From assembly GCA_949372875.1 (NCBI GenBank), contig CASIAW010000005.1:1-64000 (forward strand): DNA of 64,000 bases, in the 5' to 3' direction. This stretch comes from Candidatus Poseidoniaceae archaeon (GTDB taxonomy: Archaea > Thermoplasmatota > Poseidoniia > Poseidoniales > Poseidoniaceae). Every line of letters begins with the position of its first letter. Positions within the stretch are counted from its first letter, which is position 1. The position numbers and the translations under genes are program-made. Shown here one piece after another: positions 2,491 to 64,000 of this stretch. The notes below the pieces were generated by a model. The model had not been told where the DNA came from and searched no databases. It worked only from the letters and a program-made list of their open reading frames with translations.

Positions 2491-4425
2491 CTACCGAGGG
2501 GCCTCAGTCTGAGAAATCTCAGGAACTTTTGAGAACAAGATAAAGTTAGCCAGCAAACCAAGCCCCACCAATACTGCACCGAACATTAAATGCTCGGTGT
2601 TAGCGGGCGCCTCAGGCCAGGCAATACCCATATAAGGCAGAGCAATCAACAGACCGCCCACAGCTAATGCTGTGCGTACAGAAAAATGGTTAAGCCGGCC
2701 GTAACCCGAAAGAAATCCCTGCAACCCACCACATATAAGCCAAACGCCAATTAACGCTTCCAGCACAACTTGGGTTGAAGAAAGCAGATCCGATTTAAGA
2801 ATAAACGCAGGATCTAGTACAAAGATAAACGGAATGACATAAATCACGCTGCCCATTGTCATTGCAGCAAAACCGGTCTTCAGTGGGTTTGCCTCAGCTA
2901 TAGAAGCAGCAGCGTAAGCACCCAACGCAACCGGTGGTGTTATATACGACAGCATTGCCCAATAAAGAATAAACAAATGCACACTCAGGGGATCTAAATC
3001 TTGGCTCACCAAAGCCGGAGCCAGCACTACCGCTAGAAAAATATAGGCAGCCGTCACAGTCATACCAATACCTAAAACAAAACTGGTCAGCGCGCCCATC
3101 AATAACAACAAGCCAACATCATCACCGGCCAGGCTCAACAGGTCATTCACCAACGTACCGCTTAAGCCAGTCATCGACAGTGAACCTACAATCAAACCAA
3201 CACCCGCTAATATGACCACCAACTCGATCAATAATTTACCCACGTTATAGAGCAAATCCAGCGCGCTCTTTGGGGTTAAACGATTACTCTTAGACATCTG
3301 ATTGAGAATGAGCAAAACCGCCGTTGCGTAATAAGGCGCAATAGATTCTCGTTGTAAAAAAATCAGCAAGAATATAAGCAGTGCAAAGGCACCCATATAA
3401 AACCACCCCTCGATAAGGGTTTGCTTAATACTGGGAATATCTTCGCTGGCTAAACCTTGCAAATTATTGCGCCCAGCATAGGCATCAATCTGCATATAGA
3501 GGCTGACAAAATAGAGAACCGCCGGTAAAGCTGCGGCCACCGCCACGTCGATGTAGGCAATGTCTAAAAGTGTCGCCATCACAAATGCGGTGGAACCCAT
3601 AATAGGCGGCAGCAGAACGCCACCGGTGGAGGCACAGGCTTCTATCCCACCCGCTACATGAGGCGCCATACCGGCTTTGCGCATGGCGGGTATGGTCAGC
3701 TGTCCTGTGGTCAAAACATTGGTCACAACGCTGCCGCTCATAGAACCCATCAGGCCACTGGAAACAATGGCAACCTTGGCCGGACCACCCCGCCGTTTAC
3801 CTAACAAAGCAAAAGCCAAATCAAGGAAAAATTTACCGCCACCGGTATGCTGAAGTACCACGCCAAAGACAACAAAGCCAATAACCAAACTAGCGAAAGC
3901 GCGAAACGGTAGGCCAAAAATACTTTCAATAGACAACACATGGTAAGCCGCAGCCTCACCCCAGGTTGCAGGCAAGCCATTTAGCGGTCCTGGCATGTAC
4001 TCGGTAACAATCGGTAACACAGAGAAAAACCCAGCAATTAGACAGAGCGGCCAACCCGCAGCTCTACGCAATGCTTCAAGCAATATTGCCCAGAATGCCA
4101 GTGACGCATAGACCGCATACTCAGGCGCTGCGAATTCCCAGGCTTCATCCAGCGCTTGCTCGGCGGTGACAAAAAACATAGCCAATATACCCAGAGCAAT
4201 GGCCACCAAGGGCCAATCGATCCAACGCTTTGAGGGAAAAGTGATATAAGCCCAAGGCGCAAGAAGCCCTAACAAGGCGTAAAAATACTGGGTTTCAACT
4301 TGAACAAGAAAGCCCAACCATTGAGAACCACCAAAGATACGCAAGGTATCCATAGCCAACACCAACGCAAGCAAAGCTAAAACAGCGACAAGAGATCGAA
4401 CAAACGGGTGAGGCTGGGCTGCCAT
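2491..4425 (-). CDS. TRAP transporter fused 4TM/12TM permease (TAXI type, DctQM)
   Basis: Inner-membrane permease of a tripartite ATP-independent periplasmic transporter. At 644 residues it is the fused form: roughly the first 160 residues hold the four-helix DctQ-like part and the rest holds the DctM-like transport helices. Typical DctM features include GLMGSMSGSVVTNVLTTG and the E-A-C-A-S-T-G-G-V-L-L-P-P-I-M-G block, followed later by Y-I-T-P-P-V-A-L-G-A-Y-A-A-A. The matching solute-binding protein is encoded just upstream on the same strand, so the two form one transporter operon. TAXI systems import carboxylates or small organic ions by Na+ symport; the ligand here cannot be read from sequence. 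Confidence 0.93.
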   Translation of the reverse strand: MAAQPHPFVRSLVAVLALLALVLAMDTLRIFGGSQWLGFLVQVETQYFYALLGLLAPWAYITFPSKRWIDWPLVAIALGILAMFFVTAEQALDEAWEFAAPEYAVYASLAFWAILLEALRRAAGWPLCLIAGFFSVLPIVTEYMPGPLNGLPATWGEAAAYHVLSIESIFGLPFRAFASLVIGFVVFGVVLQHTGGGKFFLDLAFALLGKRRGGPAKVAIVSSGLMGSMSGSVVTNVLTTGQLTIPAMRKAGMAPHVAGGIEACASTGGVLLPPIMGSTAFVMATLLDIAYIDVAVAAALPAVLYFVSLYMQIDAYAGRNNLQGLASEDIPSIKQTLIEGWFYMGAFALLIFLLIFLQRESIAPYYATAVLLILNQMSKSNRLTPKSALDLLYNVGKLLIELVVILAGVGLIVGSLSMTGLSGTLVNDLLSLAGDDVGLLLLMGALTSFVLGIGMTVTAAYIFLAVVLAPALVSQDLDPLSVHLFILYWAMLSYITPPVALGAYAAASIAEANPLKTGFAAMTMGSVIYVIPFIFVLDPAFILKSDLLSSTQVVLEALIGVWLICGGLQGFLSGYGRLNHFSVRTALAVGGLLIALPYMGIAWPEAPANTEHLMFGAVLVGLGLLANFILFSKVPEISQTEAPR

Positions 4426-50578: not shown

Positions 50579-51634
50579 ATGAGCGAAGTACCTGCAACAA
50601 TGTTCGCCTGGACAAAAACAGCAGATTCGGTTGGGGGATTCTCGCGAATCGAACACCAAGTACCTCAACCAGGTCAAGGAGAGGTCCTCATCAAAACCCA
50701 TTCAACATCCGTATGTGGAACGGATATTCACATTTGGAAGTGGGATGAATGGAGCCGAAACAACGTCCCGCTCGGTACGATTACCGGACATGAGACATGT
50801 GGCGAGGTCGTTGGTTTAGGCGCAGGAGTTGATTCACACGTGATTGGCGATTTGGTTGCCATTGAATGCCATTTAGCTTGCTGGAATTGTCCGAGATGTG
50901 ATGAAGGAAATGCGCATATTTGTGAAAATGGTTCGATATTTGGAGTCCATACTCACGGCGCTTTTGGGCCATATTTTGTCGTACCTGCGGTGAACGCTCG
51001 GCCAATACCTGCCGGACTTGAACCCGGTTTTGCATCAATACAAGATCCTCTAGGAAATGCTATTCATACCCTTACTGGAGGGCCTGTAAAAGGCGCAACA
51101 GTTGCCATTCATGGACTCGGTCCAATTGGCTTGTTTGCTGTAAATGCAGCGAAAGCGATGGGTGCAAGCAAAATTATTGCTGTCGATTGGGACAACACCT
51201 ATCGGATGAAACTGGCAAAATCTTTGGGAGCAGATATCGTTCTTGGCAAAGAACATGATGTGGTTGCAGAGATTTTAGCAGCGACTGAAGGGCGTGGCGT
51301 TGACAATTCTTGTGAATTTTCTGGCTCCGCTCAAGCATTGAGCAATACAATTCACAGCACACGTATGGGAGGATATGTGAATATACTCTCAGTCTATGGT
51401 AACTCGATGCCAGAAGTTCCAATGAATGAAGTTGTATTTCGCTACCTACACTTGAAAGGAATCAACGGCCGGAAAATGTGGTCGACGTGGGACACAATGC
51501 ATGAATTACTCGAGCAAGGGCTTATTGACGTCAATGCAGTACTTACTCACCGAATGTCGATTGATGACTTTGAGCAAGCAGTAGAACTCGCTATTGATGG
51601 GAACTGTGGAAAAGTCGTTCTTGATTTCCCTTAA
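50579..51634 (+). CDS. tdh: L-threonine 3-dehydrogenase (zinc MDR family)
   Basis: NAD-dependent zinc enzyme oxidising threonine to 2-amino-3-ketobutyrate. The catalytic Cys is in S-V-C-G-T-D, with H-E in T-G-H-E. Structural-zinc Cys residues are in C-W-N-C-P-R-C...H-I-C. The Rossmann motif is G-L-G-P-I-G. W-K-W-D-E-W-S and G-R-K-M-W-S-T-W are TDH-specific and resemble the E. coli enzyme. The ATG at 50579 follows GGGAGGGGGAG; an in-frame ATG about 50 bases earlier is less likely. Its TAA overlaps the TAA of the HMG-CoA synthase gene on the other strand (shared TTAA). Confidence 0.92.
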   Translation: MSEVPATMFAWTKTADSVGGFSRIEHQVPQPGQGEVLIKTHSTSVCGTDIHIWKWDEWSRNNVPLGTITGHETCGEVVGLGAGVDSHVIGDLVAIECHLACWNCPRCDEGNAHICENGSIFGVHTHGAFGPYFVVPAVNARPIPAGLEPGFASIQDPLGNAIHTLTGGPVKGATVAIHGLGPIGLFAVNAAKAMGASKIIAVDWDNTYRMKLAKSLGADIVLGKEHDVVAEILAATEGRGVDNSCEFSGSAQALSNTIHSTRMGGYVNILSVYGNSMPEVPMNEVVFRYLHLKGINGRKMWSTWDTMHELLEQGLIDVNAVLTHRMSIDDFEQAVELAIDGNCGKVVLDFP

Positions 51635-53202
51635 GCGCCGACCCACTTGTATCGGCGAGCGCCTTCATCAACGCCTTCGTCACCAATCTCGACCAAAGCG
51701 AATTCACTCTTTGGCGTAACAACGCTGTCATCTTGCAGACCCTTGTGGAGATTTTCATACGTGATGTGGTCGATTGCAACTCGACCTGCAAGGCGTTCAA
51801 ACAAATGCCAGCGTGAAACAACTTCTCGCCATCGTGGACTCACTTTCCCTTCAAACACCTTCGCTTTAGCACCAGACCCGTAACCACATAGTCCGAAAAG
51901 GCAGTTGTCTAGGTTGCTGTTTTCTTCTAAATCCGATTCAAAAGTAGACATGAGTGCAAGGAAGATAGAGCCAGTATATTGATTTCCGATGAGACTACTT
52001 GCCCGCTGTCCCTTTTCAATTCGGCTTGCATGGAAGTCGAGATATTCAGGCGTCTTTGAGATTGCTCTTCGGTATCCGTCCATCGCTTTCTCCCAGATTT
52101 CAATAATCAAAGGATCTTCAGAATTATGTTCAGCAGGCATTGGGCCTAGTTGCTCTGCAATCGATTCCCAATATTCTGTATCTTGACGGTCGTGCCTGAA
52201 AATATCCGGGAACATTCTCTTGGCTTGGAATGCATAAGGCAAATGCATAATGATGCGAGACCATTGTTCAGTAAGACGTTTGTCTGTGTCGTAACAATAA
52301 CGCCCTTGCTTTTCGGCTTTCTTCGCAAAATTGTGGAATGCCTGCCTTACGGCATCTTGGTAGCAACGGTTCGAATATTGGCCATCAAAAATTGGATCAT
52401 CACGATGAACACTCACTTTCTCTTCACCATGAGCAAAGATTCCTAATTTGCGGACTGTCGATTCTGGAAGATGACGAATCATACGTTCAATCAAACCTTT
52501 CTTCATCGTTTGGCCTGTTTCTTGGGCGAGTTGCATGACATTCGTGATTACTGAACGTATGCTGACTTCTCGACGTGGTTTGAAAAAATCGTGAACCGGC
52601 GTGGTTGAGACACCGATGCAATCTGGGATTTCAAGAAGACGCGGATTTCGACGAACAAGTAGCGCACCTCCACCAGCGCCTTGGGTATATTCTCCTGATG
52701 ATTCAAGAGCATATTTGGCATTGTCCGAGAAAATAACGATGCCAGTTCGCTCATCATGATCTGTTGAACGAGCAACCCAATCAAGCGTTGTGTGTAATGC
52801 GTCTACTGCACCAATACAAGCAAAAGTCATATCGACGACATCGCAATTACGGAAACAATCAGAGCCGTATCGTTCTTCATATCGTTGAGTAAGCATATCG
52901 AGAATGTAGGTCGCCGTAGGTTTGGCACCGTCAAGTGCTGATTCAGTTCCAAGATACATTCGACCGATTTGATTCGGGTCAAGCCCATTTCTGTCAATGA
53001 TTTGCATGACAGCCATTGCACCCATTGTTGCAGTGTCTTCATGGACATCTGGAATCGACATTGCTTCAAGACCAAGGCCTTTGTTTAATTTGCCAAAGTC
53101 AGCACCTCTCAACTCCGCAAAATCCTTCATATCCATATACAATCGAGGGAAATGAATTGCGATATCGTCGATACCAACACAGGCTTGACTCTCAGTTCCC
53201 AT
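51631..53202 (-). CDS. Hydroxymethylglutaryl-CoA synthase
   Basis: Condenses acetyl-CoA and acetoacetyl-CoA to HMG-CoA for the mevalonate route to archaeal isoprenoid lipids. The catalytic Cys129 is in M-T-F-A-C-I-G-A, the Glu in G-T-E-S-A-L-D-G-A-K-P (Glu87), and the His region in P-V-H-D-F-F-K-P. Q-G-A-G-G-G-A-L-L is the usual glycine-rich turn. At 523 residues it is much longer than the ~350-residue enzyme of most archaea and closer in size to eukaryotic and some bacterial enzymes. The start at 53202 (MGTESQACVGIDDIAI) is chosen by similarity to the family N-terminus. Confidence 0.9.
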   Translation of the reverse strand: MGTESQACVGIDDIAIHFPRLYMDMKDFAELRGADFGKLNKGLGLEAMSIPDVHEDTATMGAMAVMQIIDRNGLDPNQIGRMYLGTESALDGAKPTATYILDMLTQRYEERYGSDCFRNCDVVDMTFACIGAVDALHTTLDWVARSTDHDERTGIVIFSDNAKYALESSGEYTQGAGGGALLVRRNPRLLEIPDCIGVSTTPVHDFFKPRREVSIRSVITNVMQLAQETGQTMKKGLIERMIRHLPESTVRKLGIFAHGEEKVSVHRDDPIFDGQYSNRCYQDAVRQAFHNFAKKAEKQGRYCYDTDKRLTEQWSRIIMHLPYAFQAKRMFPDIFRHDRQDTEYWESIAEQLGPMPAEHNSEDPLIIEIWEKAMDGYRRAISKTPEYLDFHASRIEKGQRASSLIGNQYTGSIFLALMSTFESDLEENSNLDNCLFGLCGYGSGAKAKVFEGKVSPRWREVVSRWHLFERLAGRVAIDHITYENLHKGLQDDSVVTPKSEFALVEIGDEGVDEGARRYKWVGA

Positions 53203-53274
53203 CAATAGCACTTTTACCAGCCGACTATTTGAATCAACTACCTATCAAAAGAGGATAGAATCTGATTTCAAGAC

Positions 53275-58167: not shown

Positions 58168-58923
58168 TCAGACTTTTCCGGAGGTCGTCTTGCATCCTAC
58201 GCCCCATTCACCTTCTTGCATGGCTTCTCGAGTTGCATCTAATAAGGCATCTTCGGGAGAACGAATGCGCACTGGATCATCATGCCAAGCGAGAGAAATT
58301 CTGGCACCGTCAAAAACCCAACTTTGCAATTGAATAATTGATTTTTCAATTGGAATATTCTTTACACCTTTTCCAATAGGAATTTCAATTTTACGAGGGT
58401 TGAGGTGCATGCCCAATTGGAGTGCTTTCTGAACCGATTCTTTTCCAGTCCACAACTCAATAGCGCGAGAAGGGTTTTGTTGTAACCAAGTCAATTCCTT
58501 ACCCCGTGACATCATATCAAAAGCATTCTCGGCAATACCTCTGTTTGCAAGTTCAGCATCGATGCCAACTGACCAGTCCGCCTCAATCAGTGCCACATAA
58601 GCCCACCCTGAGGAATGACCAATACTAATTGACGGCAAAGGAGTGTTAATCCAAAGTCCCGAAAGGTAGGAGAGTACTGGGGCACGCTGCTCGGTCCGTT
58701 GAACTTCAACTTGGTTCGGATGAATCCCCCATTGCTCCAGGGCTTGTGCCAGAAGCCAACGGCCTGTCAAATGCTCTCGTCTCCTCTTCTCTACTGCAAA
58801 AGAGGAGACTTCATCCACGGATGCGAGTAATACCTGTTCCAATTCGAAGTCTTGTATTGGATGACGAAAACACAGCGCTCGTACTGGAAGCGGGTATGGA
58901 GGAATCAACTCCTCGATAATCAA
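58168..58923 (-). CDS. 4'-phosphopantetheinyl transferase, Sfp type
   Basis: Transfers phosphopantetheine from CoA to carrier proteins. The 251-residue protein has the Sfp-type motifs: S-I-S-I-G-H-S at 98-104, V-G-I-D-A-E at 119-124 (Asp122 and Glu124 bind Mg), and W-T-G-K-E-S-V-Q-K at 158-166. It lies 9 bp downstream of the megasynthase gene on the same strand, so it is almost surely the activating enzyme for those carrier domains. The stop abuts the stop of the small membrane-protein gene on the plus strand. Confidence 0.9.
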   Translation of the reverse strand: MIIEELIPPYPLPVRALCFRHPIQDFELEQVLLASVDEVSSFAVEKRRREHLTGRWLLAQALEQWGIHPNQVEVQRTEQRAPVLSYLSGLWINTPLPSISIGHSSGWAYVALIEADWSVGIDAELANRGIAENAFDMMSRGKELTWLQQNPSRAIELWTGKESVQKALQLGMHLNPRKIEIPIGKGVKNIPIEKSIIQLQSWVFDGARISLAWHDDPVRIRSPEDALLDATREAMQEGEWGVGCKTTSGKV

Positions 58924-58932
58924 TTTCTCACC

Positions 58933-61900
58933 TCACCGTTCAAGGACGAACATCTGTTCTTCAGGGACAGGGGCCATGCTCTTGAGACGTAAGCCCTTGA
59001 GAGAGAGTACAGGAGCATCATCGTCACCAACAATCATCACATCGTGGACTGTAATTCCTGCCTCCTCTACAGCAATCCGTAGACTTCGCATCCGAAGAAC
59101 TTCATCTCGTTCAGGGACTCTGAGCATCGATGACCACTCGATACCAACCGGCAGGGAGGAGAAGCCCTCAGACTCCATAGCGACCAAACCAGCATTTTGG
59201 AAACCTGCCTCAATAAGCATTGGTAGACATTCCAAAAGTACAGATTCACCATTGGTTTCCAAAGAGAACTGATCTAGTTTTGGCAATTGGTGGCGCATAA
59301 GGGCAATTCCATCTGCACCAGGGGTATCGGAATCACCTATTCCTCGAAGCACTCCACCATGGGATTGGAAGCGAGGCCCATGGAAATAACGCCGGTAGAT
59401 GAAGGAGGGTAGTTCCGATAATTCCCCTAATGCAGGGGTGCCAAGTTGCGGTAATGATTCGACTTCGGATTGCAAAAAGGGTCCAAGATCGTCCCGGCGT
59501 TCGACTAATCGCACCACTGCTTTGTGATGCTCTCGTTCACCAAAGACTTCTCCTTTCGAATTTGAAAGGTCGGAAAGTAATCGACAGGCAACCCAGCTCA
59601 TTTCCCCATCTCCACGAATGAGCTCTGAATCGACGCGGAGCGTCATTTCTCCTTTCAAAAGTTTTACAGGAAGGCCAAATGTTACCTGTTCAAATCCTGC
59701 AAGGCAAGCGGAAGGCCGTAGTAAGAGTGCGTTTTCAGCGAACATCTCCAATGCCATAACTCCGGGATGGTATGGCACTCCTTCAATGGCATGATCGGAA
59801 AGGAATGGGTGGTCTGCGACTGAAAGTGTTGTTTGTGTCGTCAAGGACTGGCGCTCATCAACTTGGAGAACCTTATCGACAAATGGGAAGCGATAGGGGT
59901 CGGCGATGATACCGGCCATTTCTGCAGGTAAGCGGAGAGGTGATTCGCGGAATGCATCAAATGCATCCATTGTCCCGAGATTCCCACATCCGAGTACTCT
60001 GCGTTTGCCACCTTGTAAGGCCTCACCGATAAAAATCTCAACGCCTTTCTCGACTGAAATTGTATCAATTCCAGCTGCATCAAATACTGCTTGGAATGAA
60101 CCACGTGTGGCCATTCCAACATCTCGCCAACCCGTCCATGCAATGGCAACAGCCCTGCATGAACCACTGGCAGTTAATCGAGCCATTTCGGCATCGAGAA
60201 CACTGTTTGCTGCTGAATAATCCGTTTGGCCGTTATTTCCAAAGCGACCTGAAACGCTAGTGAAACACGACGCAAATCGAAGTTCACCGCCGGATGCTTC
60301 AGTCGCTGCCAAGAGTGATTGCCATCCATCAATTTTCACGCGAATAACTTTGTCAAATACATCGTAATCTTTTGCAGCCACTAATTTAGAATCTTCAAGA
60401 CCAGCACCGTGAATGATTCCAGTGATTGGGCGGCCTAAGGAGGCTCCAAGGTGCTTCATTCCATCACAATCCATGACGTTAACCGAATGATACGATGCAT
60501 CGTTACCTGTTTCTTGAATCGTTTTTATGGTAATGTAGACATCACGACTACGAGAATACTTCTGCCATGCAGTATTCCATTCAACCATCGTTACCTTTCC
60601 TGATTCGCTGGCTGCCATCAATTCTTCTCGTAGAGCAGACTTGCGTTCATCTAATTGGGCATCGGACCATTCAACCCATGCCTCGGTTTCTTCTAAGAGA
60701 CTTGAACGCCCAAGTAAAGCAAAATGAGCGCCGGCATTGAGTGAGTTACATGCCACGCCAATTACGGATGCGGCGGTCACCCCTGAACCTCCACCAGATA
60801 CAATCCAAGTATCATCCGATTGGAGCGGAGAGGGTTCTGCTTCAAGGTCTTCAGCAAAGGCTACAAGTGTCCATCTGCGACCATCACGATCCAAACCAAT
60901 CTCGATTTCACCACCTCTTTCAAAGAGGTCAGTATCGATAGATTCAGCAGCCTGACTTGCTTCTAGAATTATTTCTGGATGAAGGTCAAGTGCTCTCATT
61001 CGCAGATGGGTTTGTTCAAAATAGTAGGATTTTGTAACACCAGATGCTGCACATTGGACTGAGTTGAAGCGTTCGCCAATGTTTCCATGGCGACCATCCA
61101 ACGCAGTGATTGATGCTACAATACCATCTTCACGAGATGAGAAGTGAGCATCGAGTCCTTGCAGGAGTGAAAAATAACCGTGGGCGGAGAGAGCAATTTG
61201 AGAAGATGGTTGGGTATCGTCGTTCCAAGTCGCACCAGCGAGCTTTAGCGGAGCCATGTGGACCAATCCGGCAACATTCGAATGTTCAAGTTCCTTACAA
61301 ACTAAAGCGATATGTTCTGGATTTGCAGGGTCTGCGCGATAAACCGTTCGACCCGCTTCTTGATGAATCGACATGTCTCTGATTTCACTTTCAAAACCAA
61401 TACGTACTGCTGTCATTCCTCGTGCTTCAACACGCTGACAAAATTCTTCGGCAATTCCCCAGCCATCATCAGTCACAACAATGGTCCCTTCAAGCGATAA
61501 GAGAGAGACGGTTCCCGGGCAGTTTTCAACTTCGACTTGCCATCGACGGCAATTTTCTTGGCGTTGTTGAGTCGGTTCAGGCGTCTTTACTTGGGGTTCA
61601 GCAACTGAGATTACCTCCGCAGCAACCACAGGCACACGTTCAGGAACCTCATCACCCTTCATTCGAAGGATGTAGGCGGTGAAATGGTTCAATGTAGGAT
61701 GGTCAGATAAGACGAACTCTTCATCTACTGGAAGTTCGAATATGTCTCGAACATCTGCCATAATCTCGGCTTGTTTTACCGTATCAATTCCCAATTCACC
61801 TTCGAGATCTTGGTCAAGTTCAATGAAATCATTTGGGTATCCTGTATGACGAACAACCACTTCAATCAATTGCTCTTGGATGTTTAAATCGGTTGCTAGA

Positions 61901-64000
61901 GGAGCCGTTGGTTGTGAGATTTTCACAGAAGGAGCAATCGTTTGAGGCACGGATTGTGCCGGTTCACTTGCAGTAATAGGTGTGACCTTGCCGCCCTTCA
62001 TTCTTTGAATATAGCCAATCATGTGATTGAGGGTAGGGTAATCTGAAAGAACAAACTCTTCATCAAGTGGTAAAGTAAAACGTTCACGAATATCAGCCAT
62101 GATTTCGGCTTGCTTCACCGTATCAATACCGAGTTCTCCTTCGAGGTCTTGGTCAAGTTCAATGAAATCACTTGGATAACCTGTATGTTGGACAACCACA
62201 TCCACAACAATGTCAGTGAGTTCTGAATCATTCACCGGCACAGGCGCTGGCGTAGGTGGTGCTGGCACAGGAGATGAATCTGGTGTTACTGAAGGAACAA
62301 CTGTCGGTGATTGGGCAATAGATGCTCCACCCTGCATACGTTGGAGATACCCAACCATATGATTCAAAGTTGGATAATCTGAAAGAACAAATTCTTCATC
62401 AAGTGGAAGAGAAAATTGTTCGCGAAGTTCTGCCATGATTTCGGCTTGCTTCACCGTATCAATTCCCAATTCACCTTCAAGGTCTTGATCTAATTCTACA
62501 AAGTCAGCAGGGTAACCCGTGTGGTTAACAACCACTTCAATCACCGACTTTACCAATTGCTCTGCATCCACAAGAGTCACTGGTACCGATGCTTGCGATA
62601 TAGGTTCGATTACCGTAGATGGGGCTTCTACAACCGACGAACTTACTTCGAGAGTCGGTGTCACCACCAGTGGTGCTTCATCGGTGGTCATCTGTTGGAT
62701 ATATCCAATCATGTGATTCAATGTAGGATAATCGGAGAGAACAAACTCTTCGTCAAGGGGTAGTGAGAATCTCTCTCGAATTTCCGCCATGATTTCAGCT
62801 TGCTTGACCGTATCAATACCAAGTTCTCCTTCAAGGTCCTGGTCCAATTCAACGAAATCAGCGGGATAGCCTGTATGATTCACCACAACTTCGATGACAA
62901 TTGACGTCAAACTGGAATCTGTGATAGGTGCCTTAGTTGGTTCTGGTTGAGCAACAGCTTGAGCCGTAACAGGCGCAGCCTTAGGGGCGACTTGATCAGG
63001 CGCTGTATTGACTGCAACAGACGGCTTGCCTTCCCAAGCAGAAGTGACATCCCATGGCTCACCTTGGACACCGCCGTGAAGATTCTCATCTCCGTCGACA
63101 TATGCCACTAATTTGTTATCAAGAATACGAAGCACAACGTCATCACTCTTAGCGAGATTACGACTCCAAGCCAGGAAACGTTGACCGTCAATTCGGTCTC
63201 CACTCACCGGCCACTTGCGTACTAAGGAAAGAGCAATTTGCGAGCCAAAACCTGCAGCAAAACGTAGTCCATATTGAATGTTTGAATAATCACCACCCTT
63301 TGATAGATTGAGGTTTCCGAGTTCCGGATCAGTTTCTTTGTGATTAGCAATTGGTGGGATTCGTCCCGTTTTCATACCGTGGAACATGCTTGCATCTTCA
63401 ATCCCAACACCCATTGGGTGCCCGGTGAATCCCTTCGTATTGGCAATAACCAATTTGTCGGTACTCTCGCCAAAGGTTTCCCGTAATGCCCGAACCTCTG
63501 ATTGAGCTGAACCTCCTCGAGCGGGAGTGTATGTTTCATGAGAAAAGAACACTGTATCCGGGGCAATTTCATGTCGATCAATATCCCAGTTTTCCTCCAT
63601 TGAACCAATAAAAGAATTGACCGTTTGGGCAACGTGTTCTACATCAAGCCGAGTTCCATGGAAAGCGGAATTCGCAGTATGCGTTCCAAGGAGTTCTGCA
63701 ATCGGTTGAACACCACGGCGTTCCGCTTCAGAATGACGTTCAACAACAAATGCTGCTGCACCCATTCCAAGAACCAAACCGTTTCTACGGCGATCGAAAG
63801 GTAATGCAGCTTCCTCGACAACATTACCTGTTGCAGCCGCACCTGAAGCGGCGAATCCACCGCCAATCCATTCCCATAAGTCATCACCAGTGACGTCATC
63901 AGACGAAAGAATGACCACTCTATCAACGCGGTCGCTGTTAAGCCAATCTTCCGCTACTCCGAAAGCAGCAGTTGCGGAGGCGCATGCCAAATTGATGGTC
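58933..64000 (-). CDS. PfaA-like polyketide/fatty-acid synthase: KS-ACP4-KR-DH, N-terminus beyond window
   Basis: Large multidomain synthase; ~1685 residues are visible and the frame is open to the right edge. From the visible N-terminus there is a ketosynthase C-terminal half: active Cys in L-A-C-A-S-A, first His in S-H-E-T-Y-T-P, second His in G-F-T-G-H-P-M-G. Four carrier domains follow, with D-T-V-K-Q-A-E motifs at Thr394, 512, 624 and 737, separated by Pro/Ala/Val linkers. A ketoreductase comes next (V-S-G-G-G-S-G-V-T near 1065, active Tyr in T-D-Y-S-A-A-N near 1257), then a hot-dog dehydratase (H-A-I-E-G-V-P-Y-H-P-G near 1400). No acyltransferase fits between KS and ACP. The order matches PUFA-synthase PfaA without its MAT. 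The product is unknown; numbering is from 63990. Confidence 0.88.
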   Translation of the reverse strand, partial: TINLACASATAAFGVAEDWLNSDRVDRVVILSSDDVTGDDLWEWIGGGFAASGAAATGNVVEEAALPFDRRRNGLVLGMGAAAFVVERHSEAERRGVQPIAELLGTHTANSAFHGTRLDVEHVAQTVNSFIGSMEENWDIDRHEIAPDTVFFSHETYTPARGGSAQSEVRALRETFGESTDKLVIANTKGFTGHPMGVGIEDASMFHGMKTGRIPPIANHKETDPELGNLNLSKGGDYSNIQYGLRFAAGFGSQIALSLVRKWPVSGDRIDGQRFLAWSRNLAKSDDVVLRILDNKLVAYVDGDENLHGGVQGEPWDVTSAWEGKPSVAVNTAPDQVAPKAAPVTAQAVAQPEPTKAPITDSSLTSIVIEVVVNHTGYPADFVELDQDLEGELGIDTVKQAEIMAEIRERFSLPLDEEFVLSDYPTLNHMIGYIQQMTTDEAPLVVTPTLEVSSSVVEAPSTVIEPISQASVPVTLVDAEQLVKSVIEVVVNHTGYPADFVELDQDLEGELGIDTVKQAEIMAELREQFSLPLDEEFVLSDYPTLNHMVGYLQRMQGGASIAQSPTVVPSVTPDSSPVPAPPTPAPVPVNDSELTDIVVDVVVQHTGYPSDFIELDQDLEGELGIDTVKQAEIMADIRERFTLPLDEEFVLSDYPTLNHMIGYIQRMKGGKVTPITASEPAQSVPQTIAPSVKISQPTAPLATDLNIQEQLIEVVVRHTGYPNDFIELDQDLEGELGIDTVKQAEIMADVRDIFELPVDEEFVLSDHPTLNHFTAYILRMKGDEVPERVPVVAAEVISVAEPQVKTPEPTQQRQENCRRWQVEVENCPGTVSLLSLEGTIVVTDDGWGIAEEFCQRVEARGMTAVRIGFESEIRDMSIHQEAGRTVYRADPANPEHIALVCKELEHSNVAGLVHMAPLKLAGATWNDDTQPSSQIALSAHGYFSLLQGLDAHFSSREDGIVASITALDGRHGNIGERFNSVQCAASGVTKSYYFEQTHLRMRALDLHPEIILEASQAAESIDTDLFERGGEIEIGLDRDGRRWTLVAFAEDLEAEPSPLQSDDTWIVSGGGSGVTAASVIGVACNSLNAGAHFALLGRSSLLEETEAWVEWSDAQLDERKSALREELMAASESGKVTMVEWNTAWQKYSRSRDVYITIKTIQETGNDASYHSVNVMDCDGMKHLGASLGRPITGIIHGAGLEDSKLVAAKDYDVFDKVIRVKIDGWQSLLAATEASGGELRFASCFTSVSGRFGNNGQTDYSAANSVLDAEMARLTASGSCRAVAIAWTGWRDVGMATRGSFQAVFDAAGIDTISVEKGVEIFIGEALQGGKRRVLGCGNLGTMDAFDAFRESPLRLPAEMAGIIADPYRFPFVDKVLQVDERQSLTTQTTLSVADHPFLSDHAIEGVPYHPGVMALEMFAENALLLRPSACLAGFEQVTFGLPVKLLKGEMTLRVDSELIRGDGEMSWVACRLLSDLSNSKGEVFGEREHHKAVVRLVERRDDLGPFLQSEVESLPQLGTPALGELSELPSFIYRRYFHGPRFQSHGGVLRGIGDSDTPGADGIALMRHQLPKLDQFSLETNGESVLLECLPMLIEAGFQNAGLVAMESEGFSSLPVGIEWSSMLRVPERDEVLRMRSLRIAVEEAGITVHDVMIVGDDDAPVLSLKGLRLKSMAPVPEEQMFVLER
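61690..62900 (-). repeat. Four tandem acyl-carrier domains in coding sequence
   Basis: Four copies of a ~70-residue domain spaced 118, 112 and 113 residues apart. Each has H-T-G-Y-P, E-L-D-Q-D-L-E-G-E-L-G-I-D-T-V-K-Q-A-E and S-D-x-P-T-L-N-H. Protein identity is very high while the DNA differs at many third positions, so the copies are kept alike by selection or old duplication rather than being fresh copies. In all four the modified residue position is Thr (codon CGT on the plus strand at 62809, 62455, 62119 and 61780). Confidence 0.9.

What the first reader, a model, noticed from the sequence alone, without database searches (positions are those of the whole stretch)
58933..64000. PUFA-synthase-like megasynthase in a planktonic euryarchaeon
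Archaeal membrane lipids are isoprenoid, and long iterative polyketide or fatty-acid synthases are not part of standard archaeal metabolism. Here a KS-(ACP)4-KR-DH protein of PfaA-like order lies with its own phosphopantetheinyl transferase in a stretch otherwise archaeal (chaperones, HMG-CoA synthase). No acyltransferase lies between KS and ACPs, so it would need one upstream of the window or in trans. It may make a polyunsaturated or secondary lipid, or a polyketide.
Basis: partly seen in the sequence, partly recalled or inferred. Interest (0 to 1): 0.85.

Follow-up and report, generated by a model that had tools for sequence, protein, structure and literature searches.

The report
Archaeal giant fatty-acyl synthase operon
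A common group of ocean archaea carries a three-gene operon for a very large enzyme that looks able to build fatty-acid-like chains on its own, which gives a concrete lead on the unsolved question of what their membranes are made of.

Summary
The window's last ORF (58933-64000, minus) is the C-terminal 1,688 aa of a 3,045-aa protein whose gene runs to 68070 on the same contig. Order: KS1-AT-degenerate ACP-KS2-4 ACP-KR-DH. A FabI-type enoyl reductase gene lies just upstream, a PPTase gene just downstream. The "missing" AT is in the same protein, beyond the window edge.

No misjoin: the synthase is in 153 of 243 Poseidoniales genomes, ER, synthase and PPTase adjoin in 20 of 20 full-length loci mapped, and six synthase-less genomes show the empty site.

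Not a PUFA synthase by the tests made: TIGR02813 926.4 bits, cut-off 1010.1; no FabA-type match over cut-off in 19 genomes. Its anatomy resembles bacterial "Type R" synthases (PMC3098273), with DH and FabI added.

In 8 synthase-bearing Poseidoniales genomes, near-full-length KS, ACP and PPTase matches lie only in this operon; 8 synthase-less genomes have none. ACPs mostly carry Thr, not Ser, at the phosphopantetheine site (137 Thr, 6 Ser). Most likely a self-contained iterative acyl-chain synthase for a structural lipid; the product is unknown.

The parts
58168..58923 (-). 4'-phosphopantetheinyl transferase (251 aa), last gene of the operon
   Evidence: Pfam 4PPT_N and ACPS over their cut-offs; D and K columns kept in 12 of 12 relatives aligned (the 13th, L074, was not caught by phmmer); directly after the synthase in 20 of 20 loci
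58933..64000 (-). in-window part of the megasynthase gene (whole gene 58933-68070 on contig C5; 3,045 aa)
58936..59973 (-). dehydratase (DH) domain, aa ~2700-3045
   Evidence: PKS_DH_N; His column kept in 13 of 13 relatives; the whole HxxxGxxxxP pattern in 11 of 13
59971..60813 (-). ketoreductase (KR), catalytic half, aa ~2420-2700
   Evidence: Pfam KR E 1.1e-22; Tyr column and TS[VI] in 13 of 13 relatives
60811..61518 (-). SDR-like stretch, aa ~2185-2420, read as the structural half of the KR
   Evidence: adh_short 2196-2332, below its cut-off; the reading as structural KR half is inference
61669..61875 (-). ACP4 (Thr codon 61780-61782)
   Evidence: PF00550 match; GIDTVKQ at aa 2094
62008..62208 (-). 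ACP3 (Thr codon 62119-62121)
   Evidence: PF00550 match; GIDTVKQ at aa 1981
62344..62544 (-). ACP2 (Thr codon 62455-62457)
   Evidence: PF00550 match; GIDTVKQ at aa 1869
62698..62898 (-). ACP1 (Thr codon 62809-62811)
   Evidence: PF00550 match; GIDTVKQ at aa 1751
62971..64000 (-). C-terminal two thirds of KS2 (whole KS2 62971-64575 on the contig)
   Evidence: PF00109 match at C5:63724-64599; Cys-His-Lys-His columns kept in 66 of 66 KS2 rows. Outside the window, upstream on C5: degenerate ACP, AT, KS1, then the FabI-type ER at 68083-68874

Best explanation
The operon (FabI-type ER, megasynthase, PPTase) encodes a self-contained iterative type-I acyl-chain synthase. The PPTase puts phosphopantetheine arms on the tandem ACPs, in most genera on Thr instead of Ser. 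AT loads malonyl units, KS1 (with or without KS2) condenses them, KR and DH process the beta-carbon, and the separate FabI-type ER saturates it in trans, repeatedly, giving a mostly saturated or partly reduced long acyl chain. The chain most likely goes into a structural lipid through PlsC-like acyltransferases. SHOWN here by sequence: domain content, intact catalytic motifs, operon conservation, a shared site in most loci, and no other near-full-length KS, ACP or PPTase match in the tested Poseidoniales genomes. INFERRED: activity, iteration, product saturation, Thr as attachment residue, lipid destination.
For: The activities of a fatty-acid cycle are encoded: KS, AT, KR, DH, ACPs, FabI-type ER, PPTase. 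Motifs in 13 relatives: AT GHSLGE and HAFH 13 of 13; ER Tyr-x6-Lys columns 13 of 13; KR Tyr and DH His 13 of 13, PPTase D and K 12 of 12; KS1 set 67 of 67 and KS2 set 66 of 66 rows, repeated loci included. HAFH as a malonyl signature is recalled. ER-synthase-PPTase adjoin in 20 of 20 loci; they are absent as a unit in 6 of 6 readable synthase-less loci (a 7th, L126, ends at a contig edge). Present in 115 of 121 family-1 genomes and 38 of 122 other genomes of the order (counted); the 18 Poseidoniales KS1 rows form one clade (100/100). Near-full-length KS, ACP and PPTase matches lie only in this operon in 8 synthase-bearing Poseidoniales genomes, and 8 without it have none. A PlsC-superfamily acyltransferase (534 aa in G000) occurs in 13 of 16 synthase-bearing genera and 0 of 6 others. 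Of three other Thermoplasmatota genomes searched for carboxyltransferases, two have such a gene beside the synthase, one of them a single-chain acetyl-CoA-carboxylase-like gene.
Against: No product, transcript or assay. No thioesterase or other release domain was found in the synthase by Pfam. PlsC-like genes are also in all 8 synthase-less genomes, so acyl lipids may be made from scavenged fatty acids, and the co-occurrence of one acyltransferase could reflect general genome reduction. Carboxyltransferases are in all 19 genomes and none lies beside the operon in G000, so malonyl-CoA supply is not specific. One synthase-bearing genome, G001 (L074), has the operon in another neighbourhood, its TatD-like gene on another contig, an Ala in the KR nucleotide loop and Thr in place of a Glu kept in the other 12 DHs. 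A published lipid survey of MGII-dominated water saw no unusual intact polar lipids in high abundance (PMC6962369, passage).
Confidence: 0.6

Rival explanations
1. It is a polyunsaturated fatty acid synthase (PfaA-like) giving EPA/DHA-type chains.
For: Best NCBIfam model is TIGR02813 PfaA, 926.4 bits; tandem ACPs; marine host; one published sentence naming MG-II genes for polyunsaturated fatty acids (PMC4660358, passage).
Against: Score is below the curated cut-off 1010.1. FabA-type dehydratase/isomerase domains (their role in Pfa systems is recalled) have no match over cut-off in 19 genomes; one sub-cut-off match, with a stop, in synthase-less G024 (PF07977). Most ACPs read GIDTVKQ; the bacterial single-KS relatives fetched read G[IV]DSIKR. 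No PfaC-like gene among the neighbours listed; PfaD not searched.
Confidence: 0.12
2. It makes a secondary metabolite: a highly reduced polyketide or a signalling/defence compound.
For: Type I PKS-like domain order; many Pfa-like cluster types in bacteria have uncharacterised products (PMC3098273, section 7); a survey classes archaeal hits as T1PKS (PMC10304266, passage).
Against: No tailoring gene in the operon; present in 115 of 121 family-1 genomes, in most mapped loci at one site with ER and PPTase only.
Confidence: 0.2
3. It makes a hydroxy- or keto-acyl chain, or a wax, storage or surface lipid, not a membrane lipid.
For: Type-R-like relatives have uncharacterised products (PMC3098273); the ER is a separate protein and may act only on some cycles.
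Against: The co-occurrence of a PlsC-like acyltransferase favours glycerolipids, weakly.
Confidence: 0.25
4. Assembly artefact or bacterial contamination.
For: A bacterial relative exists: Nonomuraea gerenzanensis KS2 is 47.7% identical, with the same KS-AT-KS-ACP-KR-DH order.
Against: 22 loci of 21 named MAGs; 153 of 243 genomes; a genome in a single contig, G002, has it; shared flanks and empty site.
Confidence: 0.01

Closest known systems
Type R pfa-like secondary-lipid synthases (Shulse and Allen 2011, PMC3098273, section 7 read)
   Same: One protein KS-MAT-CLF-ACP(3-6)-KR followed by a PPTase gene; product uncharacterised in that paper; an acetyl-CoA carboxylase complex gene lies between the two in Koribacter.
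   Different: Here a DH is fused at the C-terminus, a FabI-type ER gene precedes, KS2 keeps Cys-His-Lys-His, a degenerate ACP sits between AT and KS2, and the hosts are archaea ('archae' has 0 occurrences in that paper's main text). Type R sequences themselves could not be fetched for comparison.
Nonomuraea gerenzanensis KS-AT-KS2-ACP-KR-DH protein (L085)
   Same: Same domain order, same SHETYTPAR and NTKGFTGH KS2 motifs, Thr ACP.
   Different: One ACP motif found; AT-KS2 gap about 78 aa; bacterial.
PfaA of omega-3 PUFA synthases (TIGR02813)
   Same: KS-AT, tandem ACPs, KR order.
   Different: Below the model's cut-off; second KS in the same chain; no FabA-type match over cut-off in the genome; FabI-type ER.
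Megasynthases of other Thermoplasmatota (L066-L073)
   Same: KS1-AT-KS2 and KR in 8 of 8 by phmmer, ACP motifs in 8 of 8, DH by phmmer in 6 of 8 and by Pfam in a 7th (L069); Thr in 27 of 28 ACP copies counted.
   Different: PPTase domain inside the synthase ORF in the three genomes searched for it, G269, G275 and G296; ER gene beside it seen in two of eight (L066, L067).

Membership tests
Omega-3 PUFA synthase PfaA (TIGR02813) | whole-protein score at or above the curated cut-off 1010.1 | tested here: not met
   926.4 bits
Omega-3 PUFA synthase PfaABCDE | FabA-type dehydratase/isomerase domains (PfaC) | tested here: not met
   PF07977: 0 of 19 genomes over cut-off, one sub-cut-off match in G024; control rings in 9 of 14 genomes
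Omega-3 PUFA synthase PfaABCDE | PfaD-type enoyl reductase | not tested
   The operon's ER is FabI-type; PfaD model not searched genome-wide
Type R secondary-lipid synthase (PMC3098273) | single protein with KS-MAT-second KS/CLF-ACP(3-6)-KR | tested here: met
   4 ACPs in the window's protein, 2-4 across the 20 relatives, so some relatives fall below three
Type R secondary-lipid synthase | downstream PPTase gene | tested here: met
   20 of 20 loci
Type R secondary-lipid synthase | second KS is a chain-length factor (classically without the active Cys; recalled) | tested here: inconclusive
   KS2 keeps Cys-His-Lys-His in 66 of 66 rows; whether bacterial Type R does too is unknown here
Type R secondary-lipid synthase | proximal KS groups with Type R KS sequences in a tree | not testable with these tools
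   Type R reference sequences not reached; one bacterial KS-AT-KS relative among the plasmid-collection hits examined
Dissociated type II FAS | separate FabD/FabF/FabG/FabZ/AcpP proteins | tested here: not met
   No FabA/FabZ match over cut-off; near-full-length KS and all ACP matches only inside the megasynthase in 8 Poseidoniales genomes; FabD and FabG not searched

The most novel reading that the evidence does not exclude
Poseidoniales carry an ancestral, complete and only ACP-dependent fatty-acyl synthase of a type-I kind, with chains tethered to phosphopantetheine on threonine, and they esterify its product with PlsC-like enzymes into chimeric archaeal/bacterial membrane lipids. It would be a de novo fatty-acid synthase feeding archaeal membranes.
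Probability: 0.3. Interest if true: 0.9.

Novelty: new variant of a known kind. Interest (0 to 1): 0.68.

Why it matters
A 2020 lipid study of MGII-dominated waters states that MGII do not seem to make known archaeal membrane lipids and asks which lipids they do make (PMC6962369, passage). MGII lack G1P dehydrogenase and nearly all genera have a bacterial-type G3P dehydrogenase (PMC6461757, section read). This operon gives that question a defined, expressible three-gene target, present in 115 of 121 genomes of the window's family (Poseidoniaceae by inference). It also offers a natural comparison, synthase-bearing against synthase-less genera of one order, and a testable biochemical oddity, threonine in place of serine as phosphopantetheine attachment residue. 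Megasynthases of this kind also occur elsewhere in Thermoplasmatota (17 sampled genomes outside the order), in two of three genomes searched for it beside a carboxyltransferase gene.

Tried and rejected
PUFA synthase as the specific reading: rejected on the model cut-off and the lack of FabA-type matches. Misjoin or contamination: rejected on synteny and prevalence. KS2 as a Cys-less chain-length factor: rejected, residues intact in 66 of 66 rows; a first version of that alignment was wrong because the KS2 rows had caught KS1, and was redone. A structure model of KS2 failed (mean pLDDT 38.6) and is not used. A first ACP regular expression was faulty and was replaced by a corrected pattern and an HMM. 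The first ER check used a generic pattern and was repeated on aligned columns. Donor of the operon: not resolved. Co-occurrence of a PlsC-like gene as proof of lipid fate: kept as weak support only, since the family is in all 19 genomes; two of the 132 acyltransferase matches (G038, G076) are paralogue-level, and without them the counts are 122 both, 31 synthase only, 8 acyltransferase only, 82 neither. Literature: 10 searches; among their listings and the 13 papers opened I saw one sentence on MG-II genes for polyunsaturated fatty acids, mentions of putative fatty-acid genes in MGII, and survey counts or transcripts of PKS in Thermoplasmatota, and no description of this operon. Papers: passages only for PMC8430335, PMC4660358, PMC6336850, PMC9723583, PMC6741140, PMC6864105, PMC6962369, PMC7852524, PMC10304266, PMC12144867 and PMC9902471; passages plus one section each for PMC3098273 (section 7) and PMC6461757 (section 24); the rest as listings. 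Thr-linked phosphopantetheine was not searched in the literature.

Full report
OBSERVATION. The ORF at 58933-63999 (minus) runs off the window and holds four PP-binding stretches, KR and a PKS-type DH; a PPTase lies at 58168-58923. The window is the first 64,000 bases of contig C5 (170,830 bases). On that contig the gene continues to 68070 and encodes 3,045 aa. Pfam on the whole protein: KS1 19-427 with its C-terminal extension, AT 640-969, a second ketoacyl-synt stretch, four ACPs, KR, PKS_DH_N. A 263-aa FabI-type enoyl reductase gene ends 12 bases before the synthase start, and the PPTase ORF starts 9 bases after the synthase end.

ANATOMY. KS1 and KS2 both keep Cys, His, Lys, His (67 of 67 KS1 rows and 66 of 66 KS2 rows; rows include repeated loci of the same genomes; KS1 rows include four bacterial single-KS relatives). 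KS2 has signatures of its own (..AC, SHE[TP]..TP.R, and NTKGFTGH or a near variant). Between AT and KS2 lie 156-189 aa in 20 Poseidoniales loci against about 50-140 aa in nine other proteins (read; boundaries are those of local alignments). That stretch holds a degenerate ACP: profile-profile comparison with the family's ACPs gives probability 71%, E 3.7e-5, against 0.1% for a reversed control; an ACP HMM picks it up in five loci from four genomes, with D, E or S at the attachment column. An AlphaFold2 model is modest as a whole (mean pLDDT 65.2, pTM 0.46) but its core, residues ~55-140, has block means of 72-91. The 50 Foldseek rows shown are acyl carrier proteins or chains of complexes that mostly name one (best E 0.087, none under 0.001; probability up to 1.00). 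Catalytic motifs of AT, ER, KR, DH and PPTase are kept, with these exceptions: the full HxxxGxxxxP pattern of DH in 11 of 13 (its His in 13 of 13), and in L074 an Ala in the KR nucleotide loop and a Thr where the other 12 DHs have Glu.

THREONINE ACPs. After a crude duplicate filter (62 distinct ORFs), Poseidoniales ACP copies carry Thr at the Ser position of the PP-binding motif in 137 and Ser in 6. Per protein it is Thr only in 45 and Ser only in 3 (L074, L076, L082, three different genera). Other Thermoplasmatota: 27 Thr, 1 Ser, the Ser copy being one of four in a single protein (L069). The one bacterial KS-AT-KS protein has Thr; 11 copies in four bacterial single-KS relatives have Ser. No other residue occurs in the copies that match the motif, which argues that the residue is functional and not decayed. 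Thr as attachment residue is inference; that Ser is the usual one is recalled.

DISTRIBUTION AND DESCENT. 153 of 243 Poseidoniales genomes match: by my count of its rows 115 of 121 in family 1 (the six misses are 67-83% complete) and 38 of 122 outside it, in 16 of 22 genera. A class-wide search found matches in 191 of 339 genomes and 16 of 25 genera, all listed matches in families 1 and 2. The 18 Poseidoniales KS1 rows form one clade (100/100), with deeper forks partly open. In 20 full-length loci ER, synthase and PPTase adjoin. A TatD-like gene lies just upstream, with at most one further conserved gene between, in 18 of 20; L022 could not be read by my ORF calls there, and L074 (G001) has another neighbourhood, its TatD-like gene being on another contig. 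In six synthase-less genomes the same upstream genes are followed, after about 390-470 bases, by the gene that follows the PPTase directly in L079 and after one more ORF in L076. So the operon most likely sat at this site in the common ancestor, was lost as a unit in several family-2 genera, and moved or was regained in G001's genus.

SOLE ACP SYSTEM. In eight synthase-bearing Poseidoniales genomes, PP-binding and PPTase matches lie only in the operon, and near-full-length KS matches only in the synthase. G007 has its synthase split over contigs and shows no ACP match; G001's PPTase was not caught by Pfam but is seen by synteny (L074). Six of the eight also have short KS-model matches over the Pfam cut-off in ORFs of 384-440 aa, probably thiolases (inference). 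Eight synthase-less genomes have no PP-binding or PPTase match; one of them (G036) has one weak short KS-model match. FabA-type domains have no match over cut-off in all 19 genomes.

OTHER THERMOPLASMATOTA. A search of 292 genomes of the phylum with TIGR02813 gave 72 with matches, 17 of them outside the order; one (G275) is over the model's cut-off. Controls also ring, for 10 of 14 genomes, none over the cut-off, so eight loci were fetched and mapped: KS1-AT-KS2 and KR in eight of eight, ACP motifs in eight of eight. In G269 the synthase ends in a PPTase domain and the next gene is a single-chain acetyl-CoA-carboxylase-like protein; its best PDB matches are named Acetyl-CoA carboxylase 1 (animal enzymes; recalled). 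In G296 a carboxyltransferase gene lies just before the synthase.

FATE. A PlsC-superfamily acyltransferase of G000 (534-aa ORF; AGP_acyltrn domain model, below its cut-off; one PDB match, a 1-acyl-sn-glycerol-3-phosphate acyltransferase, E 0.00095) is found in 132 of 243 genomes: 124 with the synthase and 8 without, the 8 all in synthase-bearing genera; 13 of 16 against 0 of 6 genera, Fisher p 0.0011, not corrected for descent. PlsC-like genes as a family are in all 19 genomes searched.

KNOWN CONTEXT. Li et al. 2015 mention in one sentence MG-II genes for polyunsaturated fatty acids (PMC4660358). Rinke et al. report no G1P dehydrogenase in 270 MAGs and a G3P dehydrogenase in all genera but one (PMC6461757). 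A 2020 study reports, citing Villanueva et al., putative fatty-acid genes and PlsC homologues in MGII and leaves the lipids open (PMC6962369). Shulse and Allen define Type R (PMC3098273). A marine survey gives T1PKS as the next largest archaeal cluster class after terpenes (PMC10304266); another reports PKS transcripts from Thermoplasmatota MAGs, not said to be Poseidoniales in the passage seen (PMC9902471).

VERDICT. A real, conserved archaeal megasynthase operon with intact catalytic motifs; best described as a Type-R-like acyl synthase with DH and FabI added; not a PUFA synthase by the tests made. Its product is unknown; a structural lipid chain is most likely.

Noticed in passing
L069:10776-17000 (G269) and G275:C132:16146-17417: Single-chain acetyl-CoA-carboxylase-like proteins (ORFs over 2,000 aa) in two genomes of another Thermoplasmatota family; in G269 the gene lies directly after a megasynthase with a fused PPTase domain.
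   Followed up: partly
AT-KS2 linker of the synthase, e.g. L006:12956-13513: Degenerate acyl carrier domain, conserved across the Poseidoniales loci examined; relatives outside the order have shorter linkers there and were not tested for it.
   Followed up: partly
L074, L076, L082: Three genera have Ser in the ACPs where the others have Thr; L074 and L076 also have an altered KR active-site neighbourhood (GYCAAN).
   Followed up: partly
L074 (G001:C39): The operon sits in a different neighbourhood from the other mapped Poseidoniales loci: moved, or gained again.
   Followed up: no
G000:C4:187722-189320: 534-aa PlsC-superfamily acyltransferase whose genus distribution is nested in that of the synthase.
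   Followed up: partly
   Followed up: no
window 51631-53211: HMG-CoA synthase matching PF01154 and PF08540, next to a chaperonin-like gene; two genes of these sizes follow the operon in five other loci.
   Followed up: no
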